Assembly: GCF_900105215.1 (NCBI RefSeq) | Contig: NZ_FOIP01000001.1 | Location: forward strand, 1,200,001 to 1,264,000 | DNA: 64,000 nt | Source of the DNA: Lacrimispora sphenoides | GTDB taxonomy: Bacteria; Bacillota; Clostridia; Lachnospirales; Lachnospiraceae | Direction of reading: 5' to 3' | Part shown: one piece after another, positions 5,970 to 23,936 of the stretch | How the letters are laid out: the number at the start of each line of letters is the position of its first letter | How positions within the stretch are numbered: the stretch's first letter is position 1 | Translations under genes and position numbers: made by a program | The notes under the pieces: model-generated | Told to the model about the DNA's origin: nothing | The model's input: the letters and a program-made list of their open reading frames with translations, nothing else | The model's database searches: none

Positions 5970-7565
5970 TTAATCTTCTATTGTTATATCCATTAAAATA
6001 TTTGCTTTTAATTCTTCATCGCTGACATAAACGGTATCAAGCCGTTCCCCTCCGCCCAGAAGCCTAGTCTTAAAGGTTATGGACTTTTGGTAATGGTCTT
6101 CCACATACCGCTCAATCGCTGCAACTGTTGTATCCCTGCTTCCGATCATGTAATTGCTTTGATCGGAAAAGACAACGCAAAGACAGCTCTCTCCCGCTGG
6201 TTCTACAACCGTATCCCGGAAGCTGGCCCGGATAGGTCCTCCCAGTTCCCGAATGATCTTTCCCCATTCACTTCGGATCAGATTTAAATCCTCCAACTGG
6301 CCTTTGGGAAGAGCCACCCGCTCTGCAGGGGTTAATTCTGGGACAGGGGCACTACTGCCGCCGTTTCCTTCCCCCGCGTTTAAGGTATCCGGGGAAGTAT
6401 TTACTACAATACCGCTTTCCAGCTGTTTTTCTATATTGCTGATCCGTTGAAGTATGGAATCCAGATTCTGTTCCATCTGAGGGCGGGTCAGCTTGATCAA
6501 GGCTACCTCAATCAGGACTCTTTTCTGGAAAGCATAACGAAGCTGATTGGAAAGATCTGAAAACACCCGGATATACCGCAGGAGTGTTTCGTTGTCCGTA
6601 AGCTTGCTGTCCTCTTTTAACAGGTTTTGGTTCTCTGTTGACATATCGAGCAGATTTTCTGCATTATCAACGGATTTTAATATTAAAAGGTTTCTTAAGT
6701 ACCAGATAAAATCAATAACAAACTGGCCCAGCTCCCTTCCCTGGATCACCAGCTCTTCAAGACTGGTTATACAGTCTTTTGTCCGGTTTTCCACGATTGC
6801 GCGGAACATCGTTCCAAACACGGTGATGTCTACGGCTCCCAGGACATCAAGGACATTGTCGTAGGTGAGAAGCTCTCCGTAATGAAATGCAATACACTGG
6901 TCCAGGAGACTTAAGGCATCACGCAACGCCCCGTCAGCTGCCTTGGCGATATAAGTAAGGGCCCGGTCTTCCACCTGGATATGTTCTGCGACAGTCAGCT
7001 CTTTTAAATGCTCTACAATGGTTTCCACCGTAATGCGCTTAAAATCATACCGCTGGCACCGTGACAGAACCGTCACCGGGATCTTCTGGACTTCCGTAGT
7101 CGCCAGAATAAATATTACATAGGATGGGGGTTCTTCCAATGTCTTTAACAGTGCATTAAATGCTCCTGTAGAAAGCATATGAACCTCATCGATGATATAA
7201 ACCCGATATTTGCCTTCCGTGGGAGGATACTGGACTTCATCCCTTATCTCCCTGATGTTCTCCACGCCATTGTTTGACGCAGCATCAATTTCAACCACGT
7301 TAAGGGATGCGCCGGCTGCGATGTTCTTACAGGTCTGGCATTCCCCGCAGGGACTTCCGTCTGCAGGATGTTCGCAGTTAACCGCTTTTGCAAAGATCTT
7401 TGCAATACTGGTCTTACCGGTTCCTCTTGTTCCGCAAAACAGATACGCATGCCCGATACGCCCGGATACTATCTGGTTTTTCAATGTCTGTACGATATGG
7501 TCCTGACCCTTTACATCCAAGAAGGAAGGAGGGCGCCATTTCCGATACAATGCCGTATATGACAT
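5970..7565 (-). CDS. dnaX: DNA polymerase III subunit gamma/tau
   Basis: A 531-residue clamp-loader ATPase. Visible elements are the N-terminal YRKWRPPSFLDVKGQ box, Walker A GTRGTGKTSIAK (about 46-57), four zinc-binding Cys (CEH...CGECQTC, about 64-79), Walker B VYIIDEVHML (about 122-131), sensor 1 FILATTEVQKIP, and the arginine-finger SRC motif (SRCQRYDF, about 168-175). Domain III follows and a shorter tau-like C-terminus ends the protein. It loads the beta clamp at the replication fork. The ATG has GGAGTTAACAGGC upstream and lies 13 bp after the phosphofructokinase gene, so the two are probably cotranscribed. I did not identify a programmed frameshift signal. Confidence 0.97.
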   Translation of the reverse strand: MSYTALYRKWRPPSFLDVKGQDHIVQTLKNQIVSGRIGHAYLFCGTRGTGKTSIAKIFAKAVNCEHPADGSPCGECQTCKNIAAGASLNVVEIDAASNNGVENIREIRDEVQYPPTEGKYRVYIIDEVHMLSTGAFNALLKTLEEPPSYVIFILATTEVQKIPVTVLSRCQRYDFKRITVETIVEHLKELTVAEHIQVEDRALTYIAKAADGALRDALSLLDQCIAFHYGELLTYDNVLDVLGAVDITVFGTMFRAIVENRTKDCITSLEELVIQGRELGQFVIDFIWYLRNLLILKSVDNAENLLDMSTENQNLLKEDSKLTDNETLLRYIRVFSDLSNQLRYAFQKRVLIEVALIKLTRPQMEQNLDSILQRISNIEKQLESGIVVNTSPDTLNAGEGNGGSSAPVPELTPAERVALPKGQLEDLNLIRSEWGKIIRELGGPIRASFRDTVVEPAGESCLCVVFSDQSNYMIGSRDTTVAAIERYVEDHYQKSITFKTRLLGGGERLDTVYVSDEELKANILMDITIED

Positions 7566-7578
7566 GCCTGTTAACTCC

Positions 7579-8658
7579 TTATTCGTCGCCGAAGCTAATG
7601 CCTATCATCTTGGCCTCCTTAACGATAGAGCCTTCCGGATCGACGGTTTTTAATTTTCCGGCTACATCGGCTAACGGAATCTTAACAATCTCATTGTTTT
7701 TCACCGCTACCATATATCCGTATTCTTTGTTATTTATGAGCTTTGCTGCCTCAGCCCCAAGGCGGGTGGAAAGCACTCTGTCGTAGGGGCATGGATCGCC
7801 GCCTCTCTGCATATGGCCCGGTACGGTAACCCGCACTTCCTGTCCGGTGCGCTCCGTGATCTGAGCCCCGATCTCATATGCCACAGAGGGATAAACCACT
7901 CCATTCTTCTTTTTTTCTTTTAATTCCTTTTTCGTCAGGCAGGCATCTTCCTTGGAAATTGCCCCTTCCGCCACAGCAAGAATGGAAAATTTCTTACCGT
8001 TTTGGGACCTGCTCTTTAATGCCTTTATTACGATATCTAGATCATACGGGATCTCCGGCAGAAGGATGATATCAGCCCCGCCTGCAATCCCTGCATGCAG
8101 AGTAAGCCATCCGACCTTGTGTCCCATGACCTCCACGATGAAGACTCGTCCATGGGAAGCTGCCGTTGTATGGATGCAATCAATGGCATTGGTAGCCACA
8201 TTGACAGCGCTCTGGAAACCAAAGGTAATATCGGTCCCCCATAAATCATTATCAATGGTTTTGGGAAGAGATACTACATTCAGCCCCTCTTCCCGAAGGA
8301 GATTGGCTGTTTTCTGACTTCCATTGCCGCCTAATACCACCAGGCATTCCAGTTTCAGCTTTCTATAGGTGTGCTTCATAGCTTCTACTTTATTAAGACC
8401 GTTCTCATCAGGTGTCCGCATAAGTTTAAATGGCTGTCTGGAAGTACCAAGGATTGTCCCGCCCGTTGTAAGAATCCCGGAAAAATTTTCCGGCTTCATT
8501 ACACGGTACTCCTCATAAATCAGCCCTTTGTAGCCATCCTCAAATCCAACAATCTCAATATCGCCGGGCATCCGGTACAGTGCCTTTGCTACGCCTCGCA
8601 TGGTAGCGTTTAAGCTCTGGCAGTCGCCCCCGCTTGTAAGCATTCCAATTCTTATCAT
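7579..8658 (-). CDS. 6-phosphofructokinase (group III type), unusual GGNGS site
   Basis: A 359-residue phosphofructokinase that phosphorylates fructose 6-phosphate in glycolysis. It has the N-terminal nucleotide loop TSGGDCQSLNATMRG (residues 8-22), GGTILGTSR, the GGNGS motif (about 110) and PKTIDNDLWGTD with the catalytic Asp (about 131). It also has the substrate-binding IVEVMGHKVGWL and PGHMQRGGDPCP. Classical ATP- and PPi-dependent enzymes have GGDGS or GGDD at the 110 position, whose first Asp coordinates Mg-ATP, whereas this protein has Asn. The Lys in PKTIDND is usual for group III and PPi-type enzymes. The phosphoryl donor is therefore uncertain. The ATG is preceded by AGAGGTGTGCTTTC. 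It lies between ffs and dnaX. Confidence 0.9.
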   Translation of the reverse strand: MIRIGMLTSGGDCQSLNATMRGVAKALYRMPGDIEIVGFEDGYKGLIYEEYRVMKPENFSGILTTGGTILGTSRQPFKLMRTPDENGLNKVEAMKHTYRKLKLECLVVLGGNGSQKTANLLREEGLNVVSLPKTIDNDLWGTDITFGFQSAVNVATNAIDCIHTTAASHGRVFIVEVMGHKVGWLTLHAGIAGGADIILLPEIPYDLDIVIKALKSRSQNGKKFSILAVAEGAISKEDACLTKKELKEKKKNGVVYPSVAYEIGAQITERTGQEVRVTVPGHMQRGGDPCPYDRVLSTRLGAEAAKLINNKEYGYMVAVKNNEIVKIPLADVAGKLKTVDPEGSIVKEAKMIGISFGDE

Positions 8659-8875: not shown

Positions 8876-9137
8876 CCGTGCGTCTCACTTTGAACCGCTA
8901 TCACAGGCGTTACCCTGGCAGTTAACTCGGTCCAGGCACCCTCACGGCACACAGAAGGTTTCACTTAGTGCTGCTGCATTCCTGCCCTGACACGGTTCAT
9001 GAAGATCTGTTGCGTAAGACCCAAACGTCATCGCCACTTACCAGGGGCAGCCCTGCAATAGGCAGCCCGGGGTGAGACATCACCCCTGCTAGAGCGGATT
9101 GCAGGTACAGGGCACCGCTATCTCCCCGGCTGCACGG
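8876..9137 (-). ncRNA. ffs: Signal recognition particle RNA, large bacterial type
   Basis: The minus strand holds the conserved helix 8 tip GTGTCAGGGCAGGAATGCAG followed by CAGCACTAAG (around 8965-8995), which binds Ffh. The outer ends CCGTGC (9132-9137) and GCACGG (8876-8881) pair to close a structure of about 262 nt, the length expected of the large SRP RNA with Alu domain found in Bacillus and Clostridium. It is scaffold of the particle that targets membrane and secreted proteins. It lies close to dnaX as in many Firmicutes. End positions are inferred from the pairing. Confidence 0.92.
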
Positions 9138-9201: not shown

Positions 9202-9477
9202 GGAGTTGAGGGGGATTTGCATTTTATTGGATTTTGTTTGTTGGTTACAGATAAAGCACTTCAGCTATTTCATCAAGCTTCTCATTGCGCTTATTATAGG
9301 TATAAGCAGACATTGTACCCATTGCAAAAAAGAGGATAGCTTGACGGCAATAAATTTATGCAGGCTATAGTGGACTCCCTTCTTCCACCTTTCCCCCAAA
9401 TAGGTGGCTTGACGACACTTGACCTAAAACATCGCCCGGCAAAGCCGGGCGAGCATTGAATAACTACGCTAAATTTT
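9202..9477 (-). other. Gap between rhs-locus tail and ffs; possible gene remnant
   Basis: No intact gene is visible. On the minus strand, 9244-9350 encodes a short open stretch (CRQAILFFAMGTMSAYTYN, then about 14 more residues) that ends in TAA and has no ribosome binding site, which looks like the tail of a lost gene. A GCCCGGC/GCCGGGC inverted repeat lies at 9432-9448, just after the last immunity-type gene, but without a convincing T tract. The stretch fits decayed DNA at the edge of the toxin locus. Confidence 0.35.
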
Positions 9478-9897
9478 CTAAAAATTTAATTGGATTTTGG
9501 CAATATTTAATTGCGTCAGACTCTTTATTAATTCTATCCATACTGCCATAGTCGCCGGATATACTTTATTTAAATAATATAATTCTCCGCCTGACTCATT
9601 AATAAAAGTTAATATATTTTGGATGTCCTCTCTTTTTAATGTCCGTAAATCTAATCTGCAACTAATTTCATCAATCTCCTCTTTTTCTTTTAAAAACTTT
9701 ATACAAGTTTCATCATCTTTACCAAACTGTATAATATCCTTTGTCCAACTTTTCTGTGGCTCTAATATTTGATTTAAATATTGAATTGCTTTTTTGTTTA
9801 AAACAATTCCAATCCATGACGTAATATCCAAAGTATCAGTTCTGGTAAACTTATCTATTCTAGGAATAATGTTGCAGTCAAATTGCCATATTGCCAT
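9478..9897 (-). CDS. Small protein, candidate orphan immunity protein of the rhs locus
   Basis: A 139-residue soluble protein that I do not recognise. It begins MAIWQFDCNIIPR and ends LTQLNIAKIQLNF, with no signal peptide or membrane segment. The chosen ATG has AGAAGGGAGAAG upstream with good spacing. Upstream in-frame codons run into the displaced rhs fragment and are unlikely starts. It lies at the 3' end of the rhs locus, directly after a copy of rhs core sequence, the position where Rhs/WapA loci keep extra immunity genes for lost or alternative toxins. This is inferred from context only. Its cognate toxin is not seen in the window. Confidence 0.5.
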   Translation of the reverse strand: MAIWQFDCNIIPRIDKFTRTDTLDITSWIGIVLNKKAIQYLNQILEPQKSWTKDIIQFGKDDETCIKFLKEKEEIDEISCRLDLRTLKREDIQNILTFINESGGELYYLNKVYPATMAVWIELIKSLTQLNIAKIQLNF

Positions 9898-9920
9898 TCG
9901 TATCTTCTCCCTTCTAATCA

Positions 9921-10238
9921 TCATAGCGGTAGGTGTAGACATAAGTTCCCTGGCGCTCTTCCTCTTCTGTGGCTTTTAAAAGCTTTCCGTCGTCGTCATA
10001 CTCAAAGGTCCGCTTTGTTCCGATGATCTGGTAATTGTCCTTTGCATCCTTATCGTGCTTGTTGTTATGGGAGTCTCCGTGAGGATACTGGGCGTCATGT
10101 TTTCCATTTTCGTGCCTTCCGACATGCTTGTCGTCCCAGGCGTAGGCATATAAGGATTCTACTACATCTTCCCCTACAATAAAGCCGCGGTCATCGTAGG
10201 TATATAGGTATTCGCTTACTACCCAGCCGCAGTCATCG
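9921..10238 (-). pseudogene. Displaced 318-bp fragment of rhs core
   Basis: This block aligns without gaps to 12913-13230 inside the large rhs gene. I count 17 base differences, which is about 95% identity, and only four amino-acid changes. The match stops abruptly at both ends. The reading frame starts at an ATG at 10246 without a good ribosome binding site, and stops with TAG immediately after the last homologous codons, at the ribosome binding site of the next gene. It encodes YD-repeat sequence and a His/Asp-rich segment but no toxin. The excess of silent changes suggests it came from another functional rhs allele rather than from a recent local copy. Confidence 0.85.
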
Positions 10239-10288
10239 ACACTCATACCTTTTAGGGAAACTCGAAAGTCTGAAAGTACAGCCCAAAT

Positions 10289-10690
10289 TTAATCAATATA
10301 CAGGTCAAAAGCAACTTCTGCATTAATTGAGGATAAAAATTGTATATTTCTTTTTGATAAAACCATTTCTGGCCCATCTCCTGTTTCCATTTCAATCACT
10401 ACTGTCACACTCGTCTCTAATGAATATTTTCTACTAAGTTTCTTTATAATATCTACCTTGGGTAAAAGAACGCCTTGCAATTTATCCATTTGAACTGAAA
10501 CAGCTTTACTTTCCTCCTTTTCTGTTTGTAACGACCAAGTATCCTGTGCTAATCCTGCTAAGATAGATGCGCGAGGCCATTCATTTTTCTTTCGTGCCTT
10601 TGTAGGTTGTAAATCAAGTTCTTCAGTTATAGCATTAATATCCACATTATCCCCTACCATATAAAAAATAACTTTGATTTTTGGTATCAA
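10289..10690 (-). CDS. DUF4279-like protein, probable immunity protein for the Rhs toxin
   Basis: A 133-residue soluble protein. The order of features fits DUF4279: an N-terminal strand (KVIFYMVGDNVD), then ITEELDLQPTKARKK, a Trp region (DTWSLQTEKEES), and a C-terminal NAEVAFDLYID resembling the family's closing iDiY strand. DUF4279 proteins often sit beside polymorphic toxins. The start appears to be TTG, preceded by AAAGAGGGGAATATA, an excellent ribosome binding site. It begins 49 bp after the rhs stop codon, which is where the cognate immunity gene is expected. I infer that it neutralises the C-terminal toxin of the adjoining Rhs protein in the cytoplasm. The family assignment is from memory of the pattern and is moderate. 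Confidence 0.6.
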   Translation of the reverse strand: MIPKIKVIFYMVGDNVDINAITEELDLQPTKARKKNEWPRASILAGLAQDTWSLQTEKEESKAVSVQMDKLQGVLLPKVDIIKKLSRKYSLETSVTVVIEMETGDGPEMVLSKRNIQFLSSINAEVAFDLYID

Positions 10691-10739
10691 TATATTCCCC
10701 TCTTTCTATCGGAATAATCCCGTATGTATTTGGATGCTA

Positions 10740-13700
10740 CTATCTTTGATTGATACATACAACTTCTCCTGTTTCAGTATCAATCATCATATTAAATTTT
10801 GCTCCATCTCTAAATGCAAACTCCTGTTTCAATTCTTCTGCGCCTTCATACCTAAACTCTTTAGCTATCTTATTAGCCTCCTTGTTGTTTTTAACTTTCT
10901 TTAAACTATTGCCTGTTTTAGAATCCCCCTTATTATTATCCTTCTCACTTCCAGAACCAGTAACCTGCTGTATAATCAACCCGGCGCCAATATCTCCTAC
11001 TGAAACTCCACTAGTACTACCAGCAATCTCTACCGTTGCATTATATTGGTATCCGTTTGCTCCTACTACCTTTACCGTGGACGTCATTGATCCCCCTGAC
11101 ATCCGGGTTGCCATTGCTCCTGTTAACATAGGAATCAACGCAAGGAATGATGCAGAATACCCATATTCTATTCCTTTCATAAATGCCTTAAAATTGGCAT
11201 TGTAGGCCGATTCCTGTGAGGTGTCTATTTTACCATAGGCTTTTTTATTTGCTATGATATATGCGTGCCAATAATTATCCTGAAATTCCTCAGCTGTATA
11301 AAGTCTGGAATCATCTCCAAATAACGCAAACAGGTTTCCAACAGTTTTTCCTTCTATATATTTCCAGAAGTCTGGTACTCCAAATTGAAGTCCTTCTGCA
11401 AAAAAGAAGCAATTCATAACTGCTTGATTTTCTTTCGCCTTTTTTACTGCCTTTTCAAGGCGATCCTTCGCTCCATTTAGTAACTGCTGAAATCCTTCTA
11501 CGTCATAATTAATCCCTTGGGGGACCTGGCGTACTGCACCATATTGCCCTTCTGCCGTCCGATCCGGTTCACCCGTTAAATAGGATGATGGCGTTTGACC
11601 GCTTGGATCTGTGTAGTTAAGCGGGCTAGACTTTACATAGTTGTACCGGTTCAGGCTTAATGGGTCTGTCAACTTGCCCAGATAGGTATCCTCTGTTAGG
11701 AAATCTCCACGTTCTACATCATAATATCTCGCCCTTAAGTACTGGAACTCCAGATTCGGGTTGTAATCCTCTGCATTATAGCTGTAAACATTATTATACT
11801 GCGGCTTTCCAAAGGAAATATCTCCGGTCGGGCCGTAGCGGTAGGACTTCCACAAGGTTCCCTCGCTGTCGGTTACTCCAGTGACACTTCCTCTGGGATC
11901 ATTGGTATAATAGCCTGTCCAACCTGTGAAACGCTCTAAGGCAAGACGTTCATTTCCATAAGTATAAGCCGTATCCATTTCTCCGTCAATGTTCACTTCC
12001 ATTAACACTTCCGTATATTCCCGGTTCACATCATTGACATATTCAATCAGCTCATAGTTCTTATGCTTTCCTGTGGTTTTAATGAGATCAATTAGTCCTT
12101 GCTCCACATCGGAAACCGGCTTTTTCGGCATCAGGATTCCGCTTTGATTCTGGCTTCCTCCGGTATTGTTGGTGTTTCCACTTCCATTTGCGTTATCAGA
12201 TCCATTATTGGAACTTCCGGTTCCGGTATTGCCGTTTCCATTACCGCTATTCCCATTACCATTATTCTCGCTATTTCCGTTATTTCCATTATTCCCATTG
12301 TTTCCGTTATTCCCATTGGAATTATCTTTTCCGTTGCCATTCCCTTTCCCATTATTAGTAGCGTTCCCGTCGTTGCCTTTGTCCTTGTTTTTATTCCCAT
12401 TGGACTTTGCTTTTGTCTCTGGCTCCGCTGCGTTTTCTCCAGCTGTTCCAGTAAAGAAATCCACAACGGAAGAAAGAGCTTCACTAATCACTCCGCTTAT
12501 TCCACTGTTCCCGTTATTCCCGTTTCCAGTGTTGTCCTTGTTATTTCCGTTTCCATTGCCGGAGTTTCCTTTCCAGTCATCATCCGTATGAAGGTTGTAG
12601 TTCAACTGGAACAGGCGGTTTCCGTCTCCGTCATAGGCTGCTGCCACCAAAAGCTCATCCGCATCAAAAACGGCTTTTAAACGGTTTTCCACCGTGTAAT
12701 CATAGGTCAGCTCTACCTTATCGGTTCCCTTCTTTCCTGTCTCGGAAATCAGGTTCCCATCGGCTTCATACTCGTACTTCATGGTGGTATTCTTCTTGCC
12801 GTCATAAAGCTTGGCGCTTATCTTCTGGTTGGAGGCGTTATAGGTGTATTCTGCACTTTCTAAAGCGGTGCCGTTTCGGGTCTTTGAGTAGAAGGTGCGG
12901 TTTCCCATATCGTCATAGCGGTAGGTGTAGACATAAGTTCCCTGGCGTTCTTCCTCTTCTGTTGCTTTTAAAAGCTTTCCGTCGTCATCGTACTCAAAGG
13001 TCCGCTTTGTTCCAATGATCTGGTAATTGTCCTTTGCATCCTTATCATGCTTGTTGTTATGGGTGTCTCCATGAGGATACTGGGCGTCATGCTTTCCATT
13101 TTCGTGTCTTCCGTCATGCTTGTCATCCCAGGCGTAGGCATATAAGGATTCTAACACATCTTCCCCTACAATAAAGCCGCGGTCATCATAGGTATAACGG
13201 TATTCGCTTACTACCCAGCCGCAGTCATCGCAGACATTTTTCATAGCAACAATCTGGTCTCTTGCATTGTAAGTGTTATATGTATTGATCCCGTTTGGCC
13301 GGTGGATTTCAGCCACTCGGTTAATGGCATCATAGGTGTAAGCTGTAGTCTTCCCATCTCTTCCTACTACTCCAGTGATGTTGTCATTTTTATCATATTG
13401 ATAATAAACGCTTTTACCATCTGGATAGGTAATACTCTCTAACTGGTCCGCACCGTCATAAGCATAGGTTACTGCCTGACCGGAACCACTTGTTACCTTG
13501 GTAATTCTTCCAAGGGAATCGTACTCATAGGTACTCTCTCCGGTGGTGTCCATCATGGAAACTCTTTGACCTAGGGCGTCATAACCATATAATACTCCCT
13601 CTGCCTGCGATTCTCCACTAGCTCCCTCATAGGATTTTTCCACCAGATCGTTAAGCTTATCATAATCGTAGCGAATGGTGTCGCCACTGTTTGTGATATG

Positions 13701-16700
13701 GCTGATCATCCGGCCGCCTGCGTCATAAGCGGACTGCTCCTTCCGGCCTTCTGCATTCACCAGGGAAGTCATATTTCCTTCTAAGTCATAGGTGTAGGCC
13801 GTGGTCCGGTTCATGGTATCCGTCATTGCCGTGACATTTCCCATCACATCATAAGCATAGGTCGTTGTCAGATTGCTTGGCATGGTTACCTTTACCAGGT
13901 TATCAAGGATATCATAACTGAATCTGGTCATCAGGCCATTGGTCGCCTGGACGCTTAAGACATTGCCGTGAGGGTCGTAGGTGTAGCTTTCCGTCAGGCC
14001 CATCTTGTCCTTAAGGTCAGTGATACGATTTCCGGCATCATAAGTGATCTGTGACTTCTGGGACAGGGGATCTATCGTATCAGTCAGTCGGTTATCCTTA
14101 TCATAGGTAAATTGATAAATATATCCCTTGGGGTCAATGACTGCGGTCTGATTGTAATTCTTATCATATGCAAAGCTGGTGGTTCTCTCTCCCGGCTTTG
14201 TTACCGAAGCGATCTCGCCTACTAAATTATAAACCACTTCTGTTGCCTTGCCTTCCGGGTCTACACTGGCTGTCAGTTGGTCAATTTTGTCATACCGGTA
14301 ATTCCACGTATAGCCCAGAGCATCGGTGACTGCGTTCCGGTTTCCTCTGACATCATAACCATATAACGTTTCCCCACCCTTGGCATCCAAGGCTTTTGTC
14401 ATACGGTGCATGATGTCATAGGTATAGGCATTGGTACGGCCTAAAGTATCCGTATCCGTCACAATGTTGTCGGCTACATCATAAGTAAAGCTGCGGGATA
14501 AGCCCAGCGGGGTCTTCACTCCAGTCAGACGATGTACGGCATCGTAGCTGTAGCTGTATGTTCCTCCGTTCTTCTCCTGTCTGGAAAGTACCTGGCGGTT
14601 TAAATCCACCTCATAGGCCGTCACGTTCCCTGCAGGGTCGGTGATACTGGTTACCTCATCGTGCTTGTCATAGGTATAAGCAGTTACTGCCCCCTTGGGT
14701 GAAATAGATTTTACAAGATTGCCCATCACGTCATACTGGTATTCTGTGATCAGGCCATTGGCATCCTTCACCTTTGTTAAGTTGCTGTCTGCATCATAGC
14801 GGTATTCCTGTTTATTTCCTTCCGCTGTGGTATAGGAGAGAAGCCTGGACAGCTCATCGTACTCATAAGCTGTGCCATTTCCTCTTCCATCAATAAATGT
14901 GGTCAAACGGTTGGTGGCATCGTAAACATAAGAGTTTTCTGCGCCTTCTCCATCAACTGTGCCGGTTAAATTTCCCTTGGCATCATACTGGAAGGTAGTG
15001 GCAGCCCCTAATGGATTCACCTTTTTCGTCAGACGGTTGATGGCGTCATAGGCATAGGTATAAACAGCCTCACCTGGCTCCCTGGTCTTAACAAGATTCC
15101 CCACCTTGTCATACTCATAGGAGGTCTGTTTTCCCTCCGGATCTGTCACCTCTGTGAGCCGGTTCAGGGCATCGTAGCCGTACCGTGTCGTAGCCAGATC
15201 CGTACCGGTTACGGATATCAAATGGTTAAATTTATCATATTCGTAAACAGCGCTTCTTCCGATGGTATCGGTTTGTTTTACCAGATTTCCGCTTTCATCG
15301 TACTCATAGGTCATGGTGTTGCCGATGTTATCCTTTGCTTCTGTGATCCGGCCCATGGAATCATAGGTATAGGAAGTGAATACATCAGCTTCATTAATAC
15401 TCTTTATCATCCGGTCATTTGCGTCATAGACCATGACCACACTGTCTCCATCTGGGTAAAGAACGCGGATCACATTGCCGTTTGCATCATAAGTATATTT
15501 ATACTCATGGCCCATGGCATCAGTCATCCTGGTAGTGCGGCTTAAGGCATCCATTTCCATGGAAGTCTCGCCTTTTAGAGCATCTGTCACCTTCTCCACA
15601 TTGCCCAGGGAATCATATTCCATGGCAGTGATAAATCCTGCTGCATCTACCTCTGCAAGTACCTGGCCAATGACATCATAATGGTAGCTGGTGCTGTTGC
15701 CGTTCTGATCCGTGGTTTTCACGGTGTTGCCATTTAGATCATACTCCGCGGTTACTGTGCCGTTTAAGGCATCTGTTACCTCTTTTAAGCGGCCTGCAGC
15801 ATCATAGGCATAGCCTGTGGCATTTGACTCGGCATCGGTTACTTTCTTCTGGTTTCCAGCACCATCGTAAGAGTAGAGAGTAATTCCACCCAAAGGATCT
15901 TCTGCCCTTACAATCCGGTTATTGCGATCATATTTAAATTGGTACACCCGGGACTCATCATCGGTAATGCGGATGATGTTTCCATTTCCGTCATAAGACA
16001 GCTTTGTTACCAGGCCGTTCTGGGCTGTGGTGGACACCATCCTTCCGGCCCGGTCATAAGTGTAGGATATGGATGCTCCATTTGGATACGTAATCTTTTT
16101 CAGATTCCCATTGCGATCATAACTGTAGTAAGTCTCATTGCCAAGAGCATCTTTTTTCAGAACAGGTAAATTTAAAATCTTATGGTATAGCGATTCCGTT
16201 ATATTCCCCCGGCGGTCTGTGGTCTTTAAGATATTCCCCTTCCCGTCCAGCTCATAGGCAATTTCCTGTCCCAAAGCGTCGGTAGTCTTTATCAGACGGT
16301 TCCGGCTGTCGTAGGTGTAATGGGTTTCCCCACCTTTGGTATCTCTTTCCTTTATCTTGTTATAGTTTTCATCGTATACATAATCCAGGGTATTTCCCAA
16401 GGCATCGCGGCCTGACAGGATGTTGTACATCTTATCATAGGTAAATGCAGTCTCTTCACCCATAGCATCCGTGATGGATAAAACTGTTCCTACGGCATCA
16501 AACTCATATTTTGTGGTTCCGCCGTCTTTCTCCGTTTCAGAGGTTCTCCAGCCCTTTAAGTTATACTCATAGGACTTGGTATTTCCCAGCGGATCGGAAG
16601 CTTCCAGGACGTGATTCATATCATCATAGGCAAACGTCCAGGTATACCCCTCGCCGTCGGTCATAGAAGCCACTACGGCTCCATCATAAGTAAACTCATG

Positions 16701-19700
16701 TGTTCCTCCATTGGCATCTTTTATGGATACCATACGGTTTAACTCATCATAGGTATAATGGACTGTATTGTTCTCACCATCCATCATGGACAGAAGGCTT
16801 CCTGCCTCATCATACGTGAAGGTGGTCACGTTTCCTTCATAATCTGCCGCTGTCAAGGGCAGGTTCAAGTCATTGTAAGTATAAGAGGCCTGGCTTCCAT
16901 CACCTCTGGTCTCTGTCAGAATGTTTCCGTTCTTATCATAGGTATAGGAGGTTGTTACACCCCGTTCATCCATCCTTCCGGCAACCCGGTTATCCTCTGT
17001 GTATGTGGTACTCTCGCTGCTTCCATCCGGATATTCGATTCTGGATATCCGCCTCTTGCTATCCATATAATATCTGGTAACATTGCCCCGGTTATCCGTT
17101 GATACCGTGCAGCCGTTCTCATAAGCAAGGCTGGTGGTATTGCCCAATTCATCCGTCTGGCTGGTAACACGTCCATCTCCATCATAAACGTTCTCCACGA
17201 TACGGCTTCCGTTTTCGTCATACCATGCAGTCATATGGTGAGCGTCATCATACTCGTACCGGCGCACGCCTCCTTCCGGATCGGTTACGGAAATCAGGTT
17301 GTGACTTTCATCATACCCATAGGTGATTATGCCGCCGTTTGGCAGGGTGACAGAGGTGATGCGGTGGTACTCATCTGCTGTCAGGTCAAAGAGCTTCCCT
17401 GAGGGTGTTCTTACCTGGCGAACATCATCACTTTCATCATAGAGCAGGACGGTCCGGTATCCTTTCCGGTCTGTGACATAACGCAGAAGACCCCTGGCAT
17501 CAAAGGTCATCACTGTGCCGTCTGACTTCTTAAGCTCCCAGGCCGTAGCCTCCGGAACCCTGTTATCTTCCTCTTCTCCATCTTCCTCAGTTTCTTCGGC
17601 CTCTTCCGTCATACCAGCCGGTCCATCTTCTAAGAAGGAGAAATTACGGGCATAGGTTTTGTTACTGGCTTCTGATGGTGTTCCCTCTTCCTCGTCCTCA
17701 CTGGGGATATCTGCGGTTTCTAAGTCAATGGAGTCTGCTGACACGAGAACCATATCATAGCCATCGGGTGCCTGATAACTGCCATCGGACTGCTTTGCAA
17801 AATTAATGGCTCCGCCGTCATCCTTCCGGTATAAAATATCTCCGTTATATCTAACCGTCAGCCTCTGACCAAAGGGGCTGCTCCAGCCGATTCCAAACTC
17901 GGAAATGAAATGGGCCGCGATGGAATTATAGCTTCTTTGGAATGCAAAGATTCCGCCCAGCTCTTCAAGTTCTGCGTCCGTCTGCTGCATAAAGAAATCG
18001 CCGGTATTCATGTTAATTGGCTCATGACTGAATACGCAGTCTTTCCCCATACCGTTTAACAGCATGTCAATCATCATCTGTTCTGCATCAGTCAGGGGTT
18101 TTGGAGTATATGGCGCACTCTGCTCCGGATTACGGATAAACAGGATGTCTCCGGAGAAGGTCAGGCCATTGCTTAAACGGTTGTCCTTCTGGATGGTTTT
18201 CTCCTCCACCCCGTAATGATCAGCGATCCGGGTTAATAGATCCAGACTTTGCACCTCGTAGAGCAGGAATTCATCGCTGAGCTTCTCCTCGCTGGTGGCT
18301 GTTTCTACACCTGGCACCATTTCTCCGGTTTCCGGATCCTCTTCCAGTACCACGCCTTCTGCCACAGCCATTACCTGATAGATGGTATCCGTTTTTAAAA
18401 TTAACCCGCTTTCCAGAGCCTGACTCTGCCAGTTTCCTGTCTTTGCCTGGCTGTTAAAGGCCTCAGTAAATGCTATTTCCTTTGAAAAATCAGGAGATGT
18501 ATAGGAATCCTCTGCCGTTACTACATCTTTCGCTGCTTCATGATCCATCTCCCGGAGTTCCCATGTCACCTTTGATCCGGCCTGAGAGATTCCGTGGGCC
18601 AGAACTCCCATGGTTGTCCTGCCGCCGGATTCGCTTTCCTTAACAGCCGGATTCACTTGTGCTGTCAGGGCGTTGATATCCAATAGGGCTAAGTCTCCCA
18701 AAAGCTCTCCTTCCCAGGAGATGTCGATTCTCGGTCCCATAGCCGTATGATCCCGGTTGTAAAAGCTCTCCGCAGGCATCCGGAGAGGTGCCTGGGCTTC
18801 AGACTTAGGCTCGTTAGCCGCCTGAAGCTCTAACCCGGCTTGCAGTCTGCTTCCTGTCATCCATGACTGCATCATGGCTGTTATATCATATTCCAGGGTC
18901 TGATCCGGCCCGGGAGAATCCAGAACATCAATCAGTTCCGGAAGTGGTTCTTTTAACTGATTCCAGGTAAGGGTGGTTGCATTCCATTCCTTCCCCGGTG
19001 CGCGCAGTTCAATACGGGTCTTCCCTACCCCGTTGCCAGTCTGTGTACCGATGCGGAATGTGGCCTGGGTACAGACTGCCTGGCCCATGACCTGAGTCCA
19101 GTCTCCGTTAATGGCAATATAGGTTCTCATATTGCCAAAGCCTTCCCTGTATCCGGCATACATTGGTCCCATATTTCCCAGGAACTTTGAGGGCTGTCCG
19201 TCAGCCACGTTTACCAGCACAAATTCGCTGGGAACCATGTTGACAGCCGAAGGGTCGATCCGTACCGGGTAGCTTCGGTCTTCATCCTGAAGCCATTTTT
19301 TATCCGCTGTAACGGTGGCACGGTAACTGCCTTCCTCACCGCTCAGCTTCATTACCAGGTTTTTGCTGGTCTTCCCATCTGCATCGATCATCAGGGGGGC
19401 TTCCAGAACAAATTCCGGTTGCCTTCTGTTATCGCTGTAAAGGATGATGGTATTCTTCTCCTGGGCCGCCTTTAGGCCCCCTGTCTTTATAGAAAAAGAA
19501 AACTGATTTCTTTCTGTCTTTTCCAGCAGGATAATATCTTCCTTTAGTGTGTTCCCTACCAGGCTGTATTGGTAGTCAACGCCAGGGTATACGTCGCTGT
19601 AGCGGATGGTGTTATCCGATACGGCACTCTTCTTAAAGCTTCCCCCTGACGGGATAAGTTCGATCCGGTGTCCCTCCCTTTCGATGGAGACTCCCTGACT

Positions 19701-20492
19701 TGTGTTGATTTTCTCTGGAAACAAAACTCTGCTGCTTCCCGCACTGTTCCCATAGCCAGCCACGGTCTTGGTCCTGGAGCGCAAAAGAGCACTGGAGGGC
19801 GTACCAACGGTGTATTCCTCTTCTGTTTCAGTCAGGCTGTTATCAATCTGCCCGACCACTCCGTTCTCATCCCGGTACAAGCCGGAATAACCGCCTGCAA
19901 CGGTCACATACTGGCCTTCTCCGGTGCGATAGGTACGGTACAACTCGTTAAACTGTACCAGCTGTCCCTCCGGCTCATCGATGTACTGATCGTAGTCGTA
20001 GTACAACTCCGGCTCTCTGGCCTCTTCCTGTTCCTCCAGAGTTATGTCAACTTTTTTGTTCTCTTCCGGAAGGGAAGTGCCGCTCTCTTCTTTGGTCCCT
20101 TCCGTTCCGGAATCTGATTTTCCGGTTTCTTCTGTACCGGTTTCCTCTGTTCCGCTTGCTTTCCCATCGGTATCTGCCAGACTGGTTTCTGCCTCATAAC
20201 TCTCTTCCACTTCCGGCGTTTCTGCCGTGTTGGTTTCGTCCGAAGGATCTGTGGCAGCGGTCTCACTGGCGTCATCTTCCGCCACCGCCGCTTCTGTCTC
20301 ATTCTGGTCAAACCCAAGTTCTTCCAGCGTCAATGCTTCCGGGCTTACAAAGTCTACATACCTCGGCCTGTTGTTAATGTACTCCGCACCGAATGATACA
20401 ATCGGTGTCATGCCCGGCGCTACCATACTCACACAAAGCAGATAGCTAAACAATTGTTTAACAAATCGTCTTCTTTTGCCCCTCATACTCAT
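10740..20492 (-). CDS. Giant secreted Rhs/WapA-type polymorphic toxin
   Basis: A 3250-residue uninterrupted protein. Residues 1-36 are a signal peptide (basic RGKRRRF, hydrophobic core, cut near SFGA). An acidic Thr/Glu/Ser linker follows to about 165. Residues about 420-595 look like a DNRLRE carbohydrate-binding-type domain, about 743-788 like LysM, and about 818-905 like DUF6531 (INMNTGDFFMQQTD, FQRSYNS). Residues about 1000-2640 hold dozens of YD/RHS repeats of the form YDxxGNxxxxTDxxG. A His/Asp-rich segment lies near 2450-2480 and an Asn/Gly-rich linker at about 2640-2780. The RHS core end is at about 2860-2966 (RARYYDVERGDFLTEDTY through NYTDPSG). The last 280 residues are the variable region, with a hydrophobic segment and a small basic end domain (KKVKNNKEANKIAKEFRYEG through TGEVVCINQR) as candidate toxin. 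Such proteins encapsulate and deliver toxins to neighbouring cells. The ATG follows AAGGAGAAAG. Confidence 0.9.
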   Translation of the reverse strand: MSMRGKRRRFVKQLFSYLLCVSMVAPGMTPIVSFGAEYINNRPRYVDFVSPEALTLEELGFDQNETEAAVAEDDASETAATDPSDETNTAETPEVEESYEAETSLADTDGKASGTEETGTEETGKSDSGTEGTKEESGTSLPEENKKVDITLEEQEEAREPELYYDYDQYIDEPEGQLVQFNELYRTYRTGEGQYVTVAGGYSGLYRDENGVVGQIDNSLTETEEEYTVGTPSSALLRSRTKTVAGYGNSAGSSRVLFPEKINTSQGVSIEREGHRIELIPSGGSFKKSAVSDNTIRYSDVYPGVDYQYSLVGNTLKEDIILLEKTERNQFSFSIKTGGLKAAQEKNTIILYSDNRRQPEFVLEAPLMIDADGKTSKNLVMKLSGEEGSYRATVTADKKWLQDEDRSYPVRIDPSAVNMVPSEFVLVNVADGQPSKFLGNMGPMYAGYREGFGNMRTYIAINGDWTQVMGQAVCTQATFRIGTQTGNGVGKTRIELRAPGKEWNATTLTWNQLKEPLPELIDVLDSPGPDQTLEYDITAMMQSWMTGSRLQAGLELQAANEPKSEAQAPLRMPAESFYNRDHTAMGPRIDISWEGELLGDLALLDINALTAQVNPAVKESESGGRTTMGVLAHGISQAGSKVTWELREMDHEAAKDVVTAEDSYTSPDFSKEIAFTEAFNSQAKTGNWQSQALESGLILKTDTIYQVMAVAEGVVLEEDPETGEMVPGVETATSEEKLSDEFLLYEVQSLDLLTRIADHYGVEEKTIQKDNRLSNGLTFSGDILFIRNPEQSAPYTPKPLTDAEQMMIDMLLNGMGKDCVFSHEPINMNTGDFFMQQTDAELEELGGIFAFQRSYNSIAAHFISEFGIGWSSPFGQRLTVRYNGDILYRKDDGGAINFAKQSDGSYQAPDGYDMVLVSADSIDLETADIPSEDEEEGTPSEASNKTYARNFSFLEDGPAGMTEEAEETEEDGEEEDNRVPEATAWELKKSDGTVMTFDARGLLRYVTDRKGYRTVLLYDESDDVRQVRTPSGKLFDLTADEYHRITSVTLPNGGIITYGYDESHNLISVTDPEGGVRRYEYDDAHHMTAWYDENGSRIVENVYDGDGRVTSQTDELGNTTSLAYENGCTVSTDNRGNVTRYYMDSKRRISRIEYPDGSSESTTYTEDNRVAGRMDERGVTTSYTYDKNGNILTETRGDGSQASYTYNDLNLPLTAADYEGNVTTFTYDEAGSLLSMMDGENNTVHYTYDELNRMVSIKDANGGTHEFTYDGAVVASMTDGEGYTWTFAYDDMNHVLEASDPLGNTKSYEYNLKGWRTSETEKDGGTTKYEFDAVGTVLSITDAMGEETAFTYDKMYNILSGRDALGNTLDYVYDENYNKIKERDTKGGETHYTYDSRNRLIKTTDALGQEIAYELDGKGNILKTTDRRGNITESLYHKILNLPVLKKDALGNETYYSYDRNGNLKKITYPNGASISYTYDRAGRMVSTTAQNGLVTKLSYDGNGNIIRITDDESRVYQFKYDRNNRIVRAEDPLGGITLYSYDGAGNQKKVTDAESNATGYAYDAAGRLKEVTDALNGTVTAEYDLNGNTVKTTDQNGNSTSYHYDVIGQVLAEVDAAGFITAMEYDSLGNVEKVTDALKGETSMEMDALSRTTRMTDAMGHEYKYTYDANGNVIRVLYPDGDSVVMVYDANDRMIKSINEADVFTSYTYDSMGRITEAKDNIGNTMTYEYDESGNLVKQTDTIGRSAVYEYDKFNHLISVTGTDLATTRYGYDALNRLTEVTDPEGKQTSYEYDKVGNLVKTREPGEAVYTYAYDAINRLTKKVNPLGAATTFQYDAKGNLTGTVDGEGAENSYVYDATNRLTTFIDGRGNGTAYEYDELSRLLSYTTAEGNKQEYRYDADSNLTKVKDANGLITEYQYDVMGNLVKSISPKGAVTAYTYDKHDEVTSITDPAGNVTAYEVDLNRQVLSRQEKNGGTYSYSYDAVHRLTGVKTPLGLSRSFTYDVADNIVTDTDTLGRTNAYTYDIMHRMTKALDAKGGETLYGYDVRGNRNAVTDALGYTWNYRYDKIDQLTASVDPEGKATEVVYNLVGEIASVTKPGERTTSFAYDKNYNQTAVIDPKGYIYQFTYDKDNRLTDTIDPLSQKSQITYDAGNRITDLKDKMGLTESYTYDPHGNVLSVQATNGLMTRFSYDILDNLVKVTMPSNLTTTYAYDVMGNVTAMTDTMNRTTAYTYDLEGNMTSLVNAEGRKEQSAYDAGGRMISHITNSGDTIRYDYDKLNDLVEKSYEGASGESQAEGVLYGYDALGQRVSMMDTTGESTYEYDSLGRITKVTSGSGQAVTYAYDGADQLESITYPDGKSVYYQYDKNDNITGVVGRDGKTTAYTYDAINRVAEIHRPNGINTYNTYNARDQIVAMKNVCDDCGWVVSEYRYTYDDRGFIVGEDVLESLYAYAWDDKHDGRHENGKHDAQYPHGDTHNNKHDKDAKDNYQIIGTKRTFEYDDDGKLLKATEEEERQGTYVYTYRYDDMGNRTFYSKTRNGTALESAEYTYNASNQKISAKLYDGKKNTTMKYEYEADGNLISETGKKGTDKVELTYDYTVENRLKAVFDADELLVAAAYDGDGNRLFQLNYNLHTDDDWKGNSGNGNGNNKDNTGNGNNGNSGISGVISEALSSVVDFFTGTAGENAAEPETKAKSNGNKNKDKGNDGNATNNGKGNGNGKDNSNGNNGNNGNNGNNGNSENNGNGNSGNGNGNTGTGSSNNGSDNANGSGNTNNTGGSQNQSGILMPKKPVSDVEQGLIDLIKTTGKHKNYELIEYVNDVNREYTEVLMEVNIDGEMDTAYTYGNERLALERFTGWTGYYTNDPRGSVTGVTDSEGTLWKSYRYGPTGDISFGKPQYNNVYSYNAEDYNPNLEFQYLRARYYDVERGDFLTEDTYLGKLTDPLSLNRYNYVKSSPLNYTDPSGQTPSSYLTGEPDRTAEGQYGAVRQVPQGINYDVEGFQQLLNGAKDRLEKAVKKAKENQAVMNCFFFAEGLQFGVPDFWKYIEGKTVGNLFALFGDDSRLYTAEEFQDNYWHAYIIANKKAYGKIDTSQESAYNANFKAFMKGIEYGYSASFLALIPMLTGAMATRMSGGSMTSTVKVVGANGYQYNATVEIAGSTSGVSVGDIGAGLIIQQVTGSGSEKDNNKGDSKTGNSLKKVKNNKEANKIAKEFRYEGAEELKQEFAFRDGAKFNMMIDTETGEVVCINQR
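12155..12590 (-). repeat. Asn/Gly-rich low-complexity coding repeats in rhs
   Basis: Two blocks (about 12160-12370 and 12495-12575) consist of short near-repeats of 6-9 bp such as TTCCCATTATTCCCATTG, which encode NGNNGNNGN-type sequence. Between them is a normal segment containing SSVVDFFTGTAGENAAEPE. The region interrupts the RHS core about 80 residues before its end. It is probably a flexible linker and a likely site of slippage-driven length change. Confidence 0.8.
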
Positions 20493-22208: not shown

Positions 22209-22230
22209 AGGGGGCTTAAACTAGCCCCCT
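22209..22230. terminator. Bidirectional terminator hairpin
   Basis: AGGGGGCT (22209-22216) pairs with AGCCCCCT (22223-22230) across a 6-nt loop and is followed by AATTTT on the plus strand. It lies between the convergent activase gene and the DUF6128-type gene, and overlaps the final codons of the latter. Confidence 0.75.
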
Positions 22231-23936
22231 AATTTTACATCGGTATACCAGAATCCAAACCTGCCGTCTTCCATTGGCTGATCTTTTGACAGAACGAAAT
22301 TAGGAAAGCCGAACATTGAAGCCATGTATCGCTCATTGCTGTAATAATGCCCTGGAATTCCAAGAAGGTAACGGGGCATCCCGTTTGGGTTCAATAGTTT
22401 TGCCAGAATTAAGTAACGGTAATTATAGTATCCATGCAGAAGGAAGCTGTTGTTGCCATAAACCCAGCTATCCCTTGGAAGGACACCGATATCCTGGGGC
22501 TTTATGGTCAGAATTTCACAGCCATCCTCATAATCAAATGCAAGAATCCTTGTATGTTCACGTTTCAACTTTTCCCAAATCATATGATGGGTGTTATCAT
22601 CCTGGATCTCATTTTGGCGAAGTCGCTCTAGTTCATCAGGATTTCCCAGTTTTGGCCGTGCTTCCTGATTGCCCATGCTTTCTTTTATCATAGCATCTGC
22701 CCGGTAACAAGTAGTTTCACCGATTCCATCCTGGGCGCTGAAGGGATAAGGCTCACTGAATACAGCTTCTCTCTCCTGGGCATCCACTGATTTGGCGGCC
22801 TCTTGTCGCTCATCTTCCTTCTCCTGCATCTCACTCGGTATGTCTTCCTGTCCGTCATTTTTCCAATCTCCGGATACTTGCTCCGTAGACTGCATGGCAT
22901 TCTTGCGGGGTTCCTGCATCGGCTCCTCTGCTTTGGCCCAGGCTTCCTGCTGCAGTGATTCCACTGATGCAAACCATTCCGGTTCTCCGGCCGCTACCGG
23001 CTCACCGGCTTTAGCTGGCTCTACGCCCGGTTCCTCCATATATTGGAGGTCTTCTTCTGATTCCTCCGTATATTGGATGTCTTCTTCTGACTCCTCCATG
23101 TACTGAAGACCTTTTTCCGATTCCTCTATGTACGAATGGTCTTCTTCCGATTCCTCTGTGTATAGTAAGCCGTCTTCTTCCGCTATCGGCTCATCAGACA
23201 TGATCCATTCCTGCTCATCAGCTTTTGATTCTGCTTTTACCGGTTCCTTATCGTCTGGTATGGCAACATCCATATCTGCATCAATTATTCTCTGGTCAAC
23301 TTCATCCAGGTGTTCTGCCTGCAGATCTTCCTCTTCCGGCAATTCCTGTTCTTCGGCAACCAAAACATCCTCTTCTACCGTTCGGTCATTAGAGGAGGCC
23401 TCAATTGTTTCATCTTGTAAAATCTCTGCCTGGGAAATCTCCCGGGGTTCATCAGGCTTCAGTGGGAATTCTTCCTCGATCTCACGTACCGCCCGTTTTA
23501 TCTGTTCTTCTGAAATAACGGCCTGTTCCTTTTCCAAAACAACCTTGGTCGCACTCTCCAGATCGACTTCCGCCGCATGGGCAACAGCATCTTCCCAAAT
23601 GGTCGTATAGGAACGCCATGTATTTTTCACATCATGGATGGTCAGTCCGTAGCACTGATCCATGTTAATTCCGGAGTGTTCTATATCGCTAGCCGATACC
23701 ACAGTCCTGAATTCACCGGAACCACCGCGTATAAAAATATTTCCCAGGAATATTTCCTGGTCTGCGGCTAATAAGTATACTCCGATATCATTGCCGCCCA
23801 CATATATTCTTTTGACACTGACCGTAATCTTGCACTGGATCCCTCTCGTCTCTATTTTGGCAAATCCGATGTTTTTTCCTTTGACTGCGCCTTCATAGGC
23901 ATAAATATATGAGATTAGTCTTCGATAATTAGGCAT
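22221..23936 (-). CDS. DUF6128-type protein with long acidic repeat linker
   Basis: A 571-residue protein without signal peptide or membrane segment. Residues 1-130 form a conserved N-terminal domain (MPNYRRLISYIYAYEGAVKG through YGLTIHDV). Residues about 150-430 are a low-complexity Glu-rich linker that includes five 10-residue repeats of the type EESEEDxQYxE. The C-terminal 120 residues (IWEKLKREHTRILAFDYEDG through FGFWYTDVKL) look like the DUF6128 domain seen in Lachnospiraceae. The function is unknown. The ATG follows AAAGGAGTGATGGC. It is divergent from nagB across a 117-bp gap. Its composition resembles the acidic linker of the TPR/AAA-like protein, and both may act as scaffolds, but that is only inference. 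Confidence 0.6.
   Translation of the reverse strand: MPNYRRLISYIYAYEGAVKGKNIGFAKIETRGIQCKITVSVKRIYVGGNDIGVYLLAADQEIFLGNIFIRGGSGEFRTVVSASDIEHSGINMDQCYGLTIHDVKNTWRSYTTIWEDAVAHAAEVDLESATKVVLEKEQAVISEEQIKRAVREIEEEFPLKPDEPREISQAEILQDETIEASSNDRTVEEDVLVAEEQELPEEEDLQAEHLDEVDQRIIDADMDVAIPDDKEPVKAESKADEQEWIMSDEPIAEEDGLLYTEESEEDHSYIEESEKGLQYMEESEEDIQYTEESEEDLQYMEEPGVEPAKAGEPVAAGEPEWFASVESLQQEAWAKAEEPMQEPRKNAMQSTEQVSGDWKNDGQEDIPSEMQEKEDERQEAAKSVDAQEREAVFSEPYPFSAQDGIGETTCYRADAMIKESMGNQEARPKLGNPDELERLRQNEIQDDNTHHMIWEKLKREHTRILAFDYEDGCEILTIKPQDIGVLPRDSWVYGNNSFLLHGYYNYRYLILAKLLNPNGMPRYLLGIPGHYYSNERYMASMFGFPNFVLSKDQPMEDGRFGFWYTDVKLGG
23031..23180 (-). repeat. Five 30-bp coding tandem repeats
   Basis: Five consecutive 30-bp units (23031, 23061, 23091, 23121, 23151) of the pattern TTCCTCCGTATATTGGATGT plus CTTCTTCTGA lie in the acidic linker of the DUF6128-type gene. 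Each encodes about SEESEEDxQYxE. Units 1 and 2 are nearly identical and the others are diverged, so unit number may vary between strains. Confidence 0.85.

What the first reader, a model, noticed from the sequence alone, without database searches (positions are those of the whole stretch)
9478..20492. Giant WapA/Rhs polymorphic-toxin locus with unassigned toxin and two immunity-type genes
A 3250-residue secreted protein combines signal peptide, DNRLRE-like, LysM-like, DUF6531, a very long YD-repeat shell and a variable C-terminus. It is followed by a DUF4279-like gene and a second small gene of no recognised family. The last 60 residues of the toxin, a small basic module ending TGEVVCINQR, do not match a toxin family I can name with confidence. 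The toxin and its neutralising partner may be new.
Basis: partly seen in the sequence, partly recalled or inferred. Interest (0 to 1): 0.7.

Follow-up and report, generated by a model that had tools for sequence, protein, structure and literature searches.

The report
Rhs toxin: divergent Ntox33-like module
A giant secreted bacterial weapon protein carries at its tip a diverged relative of a known small toxin family, with its matching antidote gene next door and the leftover antidote of a lost, different toxin behind it; the tip looks broken in this copy, so the locus is a clear but mostly ordinary example of how such weapons swap their warheads.

Summary
The locus is real and as described: a 3250-residue secreted WapA/Rhs-type protein (10740-20492, minus strand) followed by two small genes. 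The toxin is not wholly new. Its last ~57 residues form a divergent sister branch of Ntox33 (PF15533), which Pfam misses but profile-profile comparison and intermediate sequences reach. Its two known members (this one and an Oscillospiraceae MAG) carry Glu where Ntox33 has its defining His. The first small gene, DUF4279, is the cognate immunity gene by context: it sits next to the toxin in all 12 other places looked at. That pairing was already proposed in print for a Salmonella Rhs effector. The second small gene is an orphan: two relatives sit directly behind ParB-type toxins, and a 322-base displaced piece of the YD shell precedes it. A sister genome lost this toxin but kept its DUF4279 gene among orphan cassettes. 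Best reading: a cassette-swapping Rhs locus with a predicted RNase toxin, probably crippled here, plus retained immunity. New variant of a known kind.

The parts
10740..20492 (-). WapA/Rhs-type secreted polymorphic toxin gene, 3250 aa
20385..20492 (-). N-terminal signal-peptide-like segment (residues 1-36)
   Evidence: read from the sequence only; no signal predictor was run
18723..19208 (-). DNRLRE domain (residues 429-590)
   Evidence: NCBIfam NF033679, 2.9e-14
18138..18260 (-). LysM-like segment (residues 745-785), weak
   Evidence: PF01476, 0.0015, below the cut-off
17799..18023 (-). DUF6531 (residues 824-898)
   Evidence: PF20148
11595..11825 (-). Rhs repeat-associated core, end of the shell (residues 2890-2966, ends NYTDPSG)
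   Evidence: TIGR03696, 1.6e-9
10914..11594 (-). pre-toxin region (residues 2967-3193), shared with an orphan cassette of the sister genome; no Pfam family over the cut-off
10743..10913 (-). Ntox33-like toxin module (residues 3194-3250); starts where DNA similarity to the sister cassette stops; 3' end out of frame with relatives
10289..10690 (-). DUF4279 immunity gene (133 aa, TTG start), cognate of the Ntox33-like module by context
   Evidence: PF14106 4e-22; neighbourhood
9917..10238 (-). displaced fragment of the YD shell, remnant of another cassette
   Evidence: 94.4% identical to gene bases 7263-7584
9478..9897 (-). orphan immunity gene (139 aa, MAIWQ family) whose relatives in two loci follow ParB-type toxins; 3' end out of frame with relatives

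Best explanation
This is a cassette-exchanging WapA/Rhs polymorphic toxin locus. The YD-repeat shell is the constant carrier. Its current warhead is a ~57-residue domain on a divergent branch of the Ntox33 superfamily, most likely a small nuclease acting on RNA, neutralised by the DUF4279 protein encoded directly behind it. The second small gene is immunity left over from an earlier, probably ParB-type, toxin cassette, whose only other trace is a 322-base shell fragment. In this copy the toxin gene has lost its frame near the 3' end and so lacks the last strand of the domain; it is probably crippled while its immunity gene stays open. Shown: architecture, homology, gene pairing, cassette displacement, out-of-frame ends. 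Inferred: export, delivery to neighbouring bacteria, RNase activity, DUF4279 binding, loss of activity.
For: Profile-profile: 7 rows, each over the PF15533 cut-off, against 6 rows of the window's clade, probability 98.0, E 2.3e-13; against window + L004 alone 93.8, 1.7e-7; control with DUF4279 1.3. An intermediate, cassette 3 of sister genome G802, is 45-46% identical to the window tail and finds canonical Ntox33 (L057, 46% identity; PF15533 2.1e-15). DUF4279 lies within 63 bases of the Ntox33 match in 6 of 6 plasmid records (3 of the 6 hold the same sequence) and is next to the toxin in 6 of 6 genome loci where I looked (L004, L009, L010, L043, L057, L058). Toxin and immunity identities vary together (9 loci, r 0.57; 71 of 10000 permutations reach it). 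The sister genome keeps a 95%-identical DUF4279 gene whose remnant lacks window bases 10752-11609. Out-of-frame ends: in one non-ORF frame 0 of 1000 shuffles reach the score for each of 5 relative ends; the ORF frame is at chance. AlphaFold of the intact relative L004: two helices and three main strands, pLDDT 86.2.
Confidence: 0.78

Rival explanations
1. The toxin gene is whole in the living strain; the out-of-frame ends of the toxin gene and of the second small gene are assembly errors.
For: Two disruptions fall within about 1.3 kb of AT-rich DNA (GC 0.33 and 0.29 against 0.45 for the window), where indel errors are plausible; the immunity gene is intact.
Against: The 9.75-kb ORF is open, and three downstream ORFs (198, 531 and 359 aa; named recR, dnaX and pfk by me from their sequences) have the same lengths in G802; the genome is 99.99% complete in 2 contigs.
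Confidence: 0.25
2. The Glu-for-His branch is a toxin that changed its catalytic chemistry or lost enzymatic activity and acts in another way, still held by a DUF4279 protein.
For: Both known members (window and L004, 55% identical) share the His-to-Glu and the Asp-to-Asn replacement; L004 is open to its 3' end and has its own DUF4279 gene.
Against: Only two sequences; no activity data; the role of the His in Ntox33 was not tested in anything I read.
Confidence: 0.3
3. The two small genes are a double immunity for one toxin.
For: They lie about 390 bases apart on the same strand.
Against: A displaced shell fragment separates them; the second gene's family follows ParB-type toxins in two loci; the sister genome has the DUF4279 gene without it.
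Confidence: 0.03
4. The C-terminus is a structural or regulatory end, not a toxin.
For: Weak PepSY-like matches (L004 0.14; window to PDB 9vy3 0.054; G802 cassette 3 0.6).
Against: Strong profile match to a toxin family, immunity partner, and exchange as a cassette.
Confidence: 0.04

Closest known systems
Ntox33 / polymorphic toxin type 33 (PF15533)
   Same: Homologous by profile-profile comparison; same C-terminal placement in Rhs and HINT proteins; same DUF4279 neighbour
   Different: Pfam does not detect it; the defining His is Glu and the first Asp of DxxxD is Asn in window and L004; the window copy lacks the last strand
Rhs-Ntox33/DUF4279 effector-immunity pair proposed in Salmonella (PMC13304343, passages read)
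   Same: Rhs carrier, Ntox33-type tip, DUF4279 gene next to it
   Different: T6SS/PAAR delivery there; here a signal-peptide-like N-terminus as in WapA; diverged motif
Bacillus subtilis WapA (PMC5566331, passages read)
   Same: Secreted protein with a C-terminal RNase toxin and an adjacent immunity gene (YD repeats of WapA are recalled)
   Different: Other toxin module and immunity family (recalled, not compared here); no delivery evidence here
Orphan rhs-CT/rhsI modules (PMC3150448, passages read)
   Same: Displaced toxin/immunity cassettes downstream of the main gene, with leftover rhs sequence
   Different: Here a WapA-type carrier in an unnamed organism; one cassette reduced to immunity and short remnants in the sister genome
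Tox-ParB toxins (Zhang 2012, PMC3482391, passages read)
   Same: Two relatives of the second small gene follow a ParB-type toxin with the DGHHR motif
   Different: No ParB toxin is left beside the gene in the window; the MAIWQ family matched no Pfam entry

Membership tests
WapA/Rhs polymorphic toxin | N-terminal export region, DUF6531, long YD-repeat array, Rhs-associated core, variable C-terminus | tested here: met
   signal segment by eye only
WapA/Rhs polymorphic toxin | C-terminus exchanged between relatives while the shell is conserved | tested here: met
   shell 93.5% identical in DNA to G802, tips unlike
Ntox33 (PF15533) | Match to the curated Pfam model | tested here: not met
   no hit at E <= 10 for window, L004 or G802 cassette 3; none at E <= 1 for P0003 and P0004; P0002 not scanned
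Ntox33 (PF15533) | [DN]xHxxK motif (Zhang 2012 table) | tested here: not met
   window GAEELK, L004 NAEQLK: Glu for His; met in G802 cassette 3 and P0002-P0004 (DAHDLK/DAHELK)
Ntox33 (PF15533) | DxxxD motif (Zhang 2012 table) | tested here: not met
   window NMMID, L004 NMFYN; G802 cassette 3 DMKYD meets it
Ntox33 superfamily (homology, wider than PF15533) | Significant profile-profile similarity over most of the domain | tested here: met
   98.0, 2.3e-13 over 54 columns; control 1.3
Ntox33-type toxin with DUF4279 immunity | DUF4279 gene directly downstream | tested here: met
BECR-fold RNase | N-terminal helical segment followed by a meander of four strands | tested here: inconclusive
   model of L004 has two helices then three strands; colicin D only at E 4.1 and 5.6
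BECR-fold RNase | RNase activity | not testable with these tools
   needs protein
DUF4279 (PF14106) | Curated Pfam match | tested here: met
   79.1 bits against cut-off 25
Immunity to ParB-type toxins (gene 2) | Relatives placed directly after a ParB-type toxin | tested here: inconclusive
   2 (L060, L065) of the 6 other genomes with a match among 299; ParB_N 0.0036 and 0.0056 and ParBc_2 0.0085 and 0.0058 are all under the Pfam cut-offs, DGHHR present in both; L013/L062, L061 and L063 show no toxin frame directly before it, L066 is a fragment match

The most novel reading that the evidence does not exclude
The window and L004 define a separate toxin branch that has replaced the His of Ntox33 by Glu (and the first Asp by Asn) and kept toxicity with altered chemistry or target, so that DUF4279 proteins inhibit a wider set of toxins than Ntox33 proper; in the window strain the toxin has then been silenced by frame loss while immunity is kept.
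Probability: 0.3. Interest if true: 0.5.

Novelty: new variant of a known kind. Interest (0 to 1): 0.36.

Why it matters
It takes an 'unassigned' Rhs tip into a known toxin superfamily, shows that Ntox33 is wider than the Pfam model and its His motif, adds neighbourhood support for DUF4279 as its immunity family (Zhang 2012's table lists none for Ntox33), and suggests that an unnamed family of about 140-150 aa (MAIWQ) is immunity to a ParB-type toxin. Comparison with a sister genome shows the life of a cassette: tip exchanged, toxin deleted, immunity kept.

Tried and rejected

Rejected: PepSY-like fold (weak); SNARE, TyeA, EFG_III and other single weak Pfam rows; L011 as an Ntox33 member (18.6 bits, below the cut-off, and in a stretch of ordinary genes by my reading). 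The control genomes rang in 2 of 14, both below the cut-off.

Rows dropped: structure job 1 used 5 of the 13 tails at hand (L004, window, P0002-P0004), because loci from the genome search and from plasmid records are not on the tool's list. A7 held 19 of the 30 returned gene-2 proteins plus the window's copy and L013 (21 rows); A9 held 25 of the 30 (P0007 first) plus the window's copy (26 rows; P0005, P0026, P0028, P0033 and P0034 left out). L059 was left out of the pair counts because its contig ends before the next gene; P0002-P0004 have no context in the protein database; L068 was not looked at. The correlation test used the 9 loci with both toxin and immunity out of 10 toxin rows.

Papers: PMC13304343, PMC3482391, PMC3150448, PMC12700104, PMC13129497 and PMC5566331 were seen as passages only; PMC12645872 and PMC4615327 (DUF4279) only in a listing.
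Full report
OBSERVATION. The 3250-aa ORF at 10740-20492 (-) and the small ORFs behind it exist as stated. Domain scans give DNRLRE (429-590), a weak LysM (745-785, under the cut-off), DUF6531 (824-898), 40 RHS_repeat stretches and the Rhs-associated core (2890-2966). The N-terminus looks like a signal peptide by eye; no predictor was run. The 286 C-terminal residues reach no cut-off in Pfam and match nothing of note in three other libraries. The first small gene is DUF4279 (4e-22). The second matches no family over a cut-off.

Between the two small genes lies a 322-base piece of the YD shell, 94.4% identical to gene bases 7263-7584: a displaced cassette remnant. GC falls from 0.48 in the shell to 0.33 in toxin tail and DUF4279 and 0.29 in gene 2, as expected of imported modules.

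THE TOXIN. A scan of one genome per species (84,980) found one relative of the last 56 residues: L004, a MAG titled Oscillospiraceae, 59% identity in the best segment, in an Rhs ORF followed at once by a DUF4279 gene; records of the window's own genome may be left out of that scan. The own genus (25 genomes) gave a second, G802. Canonical Ntox33 was met through DUF4279: plasmid L008 carries PT-HINT, Ntox33 (2.1e-13) and DUF4279. In 398 genomes of the phylum PF15533 matched 3, 2 of them over the cut-off (L009, L010). G802's tail then bridged the gap: searched in 392 genomes of the order it matched 4, the own genome included; the other three, L057, L058 and L059, are Ntox33 over the cut-off. In plasmids its 4 hits of 4 are Ntox33 genes, though at E 0.05-0.1 and with 3 of the 4 being one sequence. 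Profile-profile comparison gives 98.0 and 2.3e-13 for the whole clade and 93.8 and 1.7e-7 for window plus L004 alone, against 1.3 for a control. In single-sequence scoring 0 of 2000 shuffles reach the score of L004 or of each of the four others, but 47 of 2000 reach that of the window tail. So homology is sound, by way of intermediates.

It is still not filed as Ntox33: the window and L004 lack the defining His (Glu instead) and the first Asp of DxxxD (Asn), and none of the 5 clade members scanned, of 6, is hit by PF15533 (P0002 not scanned). Because a gene that is open to its end, L004, shares both changes, they look like a feature of the branch and not decay of this copy.

STRUCTURE. The model of L004 (69 aa, 5 rows) is confident: helices 9-18 and 24-32, strands 39-44, 49-54 and 61-67, and a short strand 3-5; pLDDT 86.2, pTM 0.68. 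A helical segment followed by a strand meander is the order that Zhang et al. give for BECR RNases (four strands there; PMC3482391, passages), but no solved structure matched well, so fold membership is open. Ntox33 is described as a predicted RNase of uncertain metal dependence (PMC13129497, passage); that is prediction.

THE 3' END. The window ORF stops before the place of the third main strand. Scored frame by frame, one other frame of the DNA at the 3' end matches the last 18 residues of L004 and the last 20 of G802 cassette 3 (0 of 1000 shuffles each), while the ORF frame is at chance (844 and 494 of 1000). Gene 2 shows the same against three relatives (0 of 1000 each; ORF frame 413, 147 and 225 of 1000). 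The remnant in G802 also keeps such an end before its DUF4279 gene. Open copies exist in relatives. Two such losses so close together may be decay or sequencing error; the long ORF and the neighbouring genes are open. Against a simple 'dead' verdict, P0004 and L059 also lack the TGL ending.

IMMUNITY. DUF4279 lies within 63 bases of the Ntox33 match in all 6 plasmid records with one (three hold the same sequence), and next to the toxin in 6 of 6 genome loci looked at; for L009, L010, L057 and L058 the partner was called DUF4279 by alignment, not by a Pfam scan. The other 6 of 12 plasmid DUF4279 places show no Ntox33 match, so DUF4279 also occurs without it. Pairwise identities of toxins and partners correlate (9 loci, r 0.57, 71 of 10000 permutations). 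PMC13304343 (passages) proposed the same pair in Salmonella; Zhang 2012's table lists no immunity for Ntox33. In whole-library searches 3 papers hold 'Ntox33', 3 hold 'DUF4279' and 1 holds 'polymorphic toxin type 33'.

GENE 2. 30 proteins match it, its own copy among them; the family begins MAIWQ. Of 299 genomes of the family 7 match, the own one included. In L060 and L065 it stands directly behind a reading frame that ends in a ParB-like domain with DGHHR (ParB_N 0.0036 and 0.0056, under the cut-off); in L013 (the same place as L062), L061 and L063 it stands among small or unrelated genes, and L066 is a fragment match. It is best read as orphan immunity against a ParB-type toxin that is no longer beside it; two loci with sub-threshold ParB matches make this likely, not certain.

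THE SISTER GENOME. G802 has the same site (shell and upstream flank 93.5% identical, downstream flank 96.8%) but carries, in order: the main rhs gene with another tip and a small gene behind it; an orphan cassette with a small gene; an orphan cassette (L043:15771-18233) with an Ntox33-like tip bearing DAHDLK and its DUF4279 gene (4.5e-8); and a remnant made of 188 bases of shell, the last bases of the window's toxin gene, and a DUF4279 gene 95% identical to the window's. Window bases 10752-11609 are missing from that remnant: pre-toxin and toxin gone, immunity kept. Similarity to the third cassette stops at 10913, which sets the start of the exchangeable tip at about residue 3194. Window bases 9244-10238, with shell fragment and gene 2, are absent from this place in G802. 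The remnant's DUF4279 differs at 8 bases (5 codons changed in amino acid, 3 silent; dN 0.016, dS 0.037), too few to judge selection. Orphan modules of this kind are known from Rhs and CDI loci (PMC3150448, passages).

MECHANISM. Most likely: Sec export; YD shell holding the tip; delivery to neighbouring cells by contact as for WapA (PMC5566331, passages); release of a small RNA-cutting domain; protection of kin by DUF4279. Only the gene anatomy and homology are shown. In this strain the tip is probably crippled, so the locus would serve as immunity store and as acceptor for new cassettes.

VERDICT. A good example of a known kind with a new variant tip; interest moderate.

Noticed in passing
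L043:10347-11298 and 11300-11707; L043:14606-14905 and 14961-15467: The sister genome's main rhs tip and its second orphan tip, with the small genes behind them, reach no Pfam cut-off: further unassigned pairs at the same site.
   Followed up: partly
L044:11617-12216 and 12216-12626: A third genus member (G796) carries yet another tip and small gene, neither reaching a Pfam cut-off, on a 3558-aa protein.
   Followed up: partly
L004:4878-5309 and 6330-6644: Downstream of the L004 pair lie two copies of a small frame with a GMEVHHLIE motif that reminds me, from memory, of HNH-type toxin tips; perhaps further orphan cassettes. Pfam gave only weak unrelated rows for the first.
   Followed up: partly
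window 8876-9137 (-): Bacterial large SRP RNA (RF01854, 194 bits) marks the downstream border of the locus.
   Followed up: yes
own genome C1:2610955-2611056 (+): A second, weak DUF6531 match in a 1737-aa frame; similar short weak hits recur in other genus members.
   Followed up: no
window 22221-23936 (-): 571-aa protein with a long acidic, repeat-like middle.
   Followed up: no
residues about 2640-2785 of the 3250-aa protein: A long Asn/Gly-rich low-complexity insertion interrupts the end of the YD shell.
   Followed up: no
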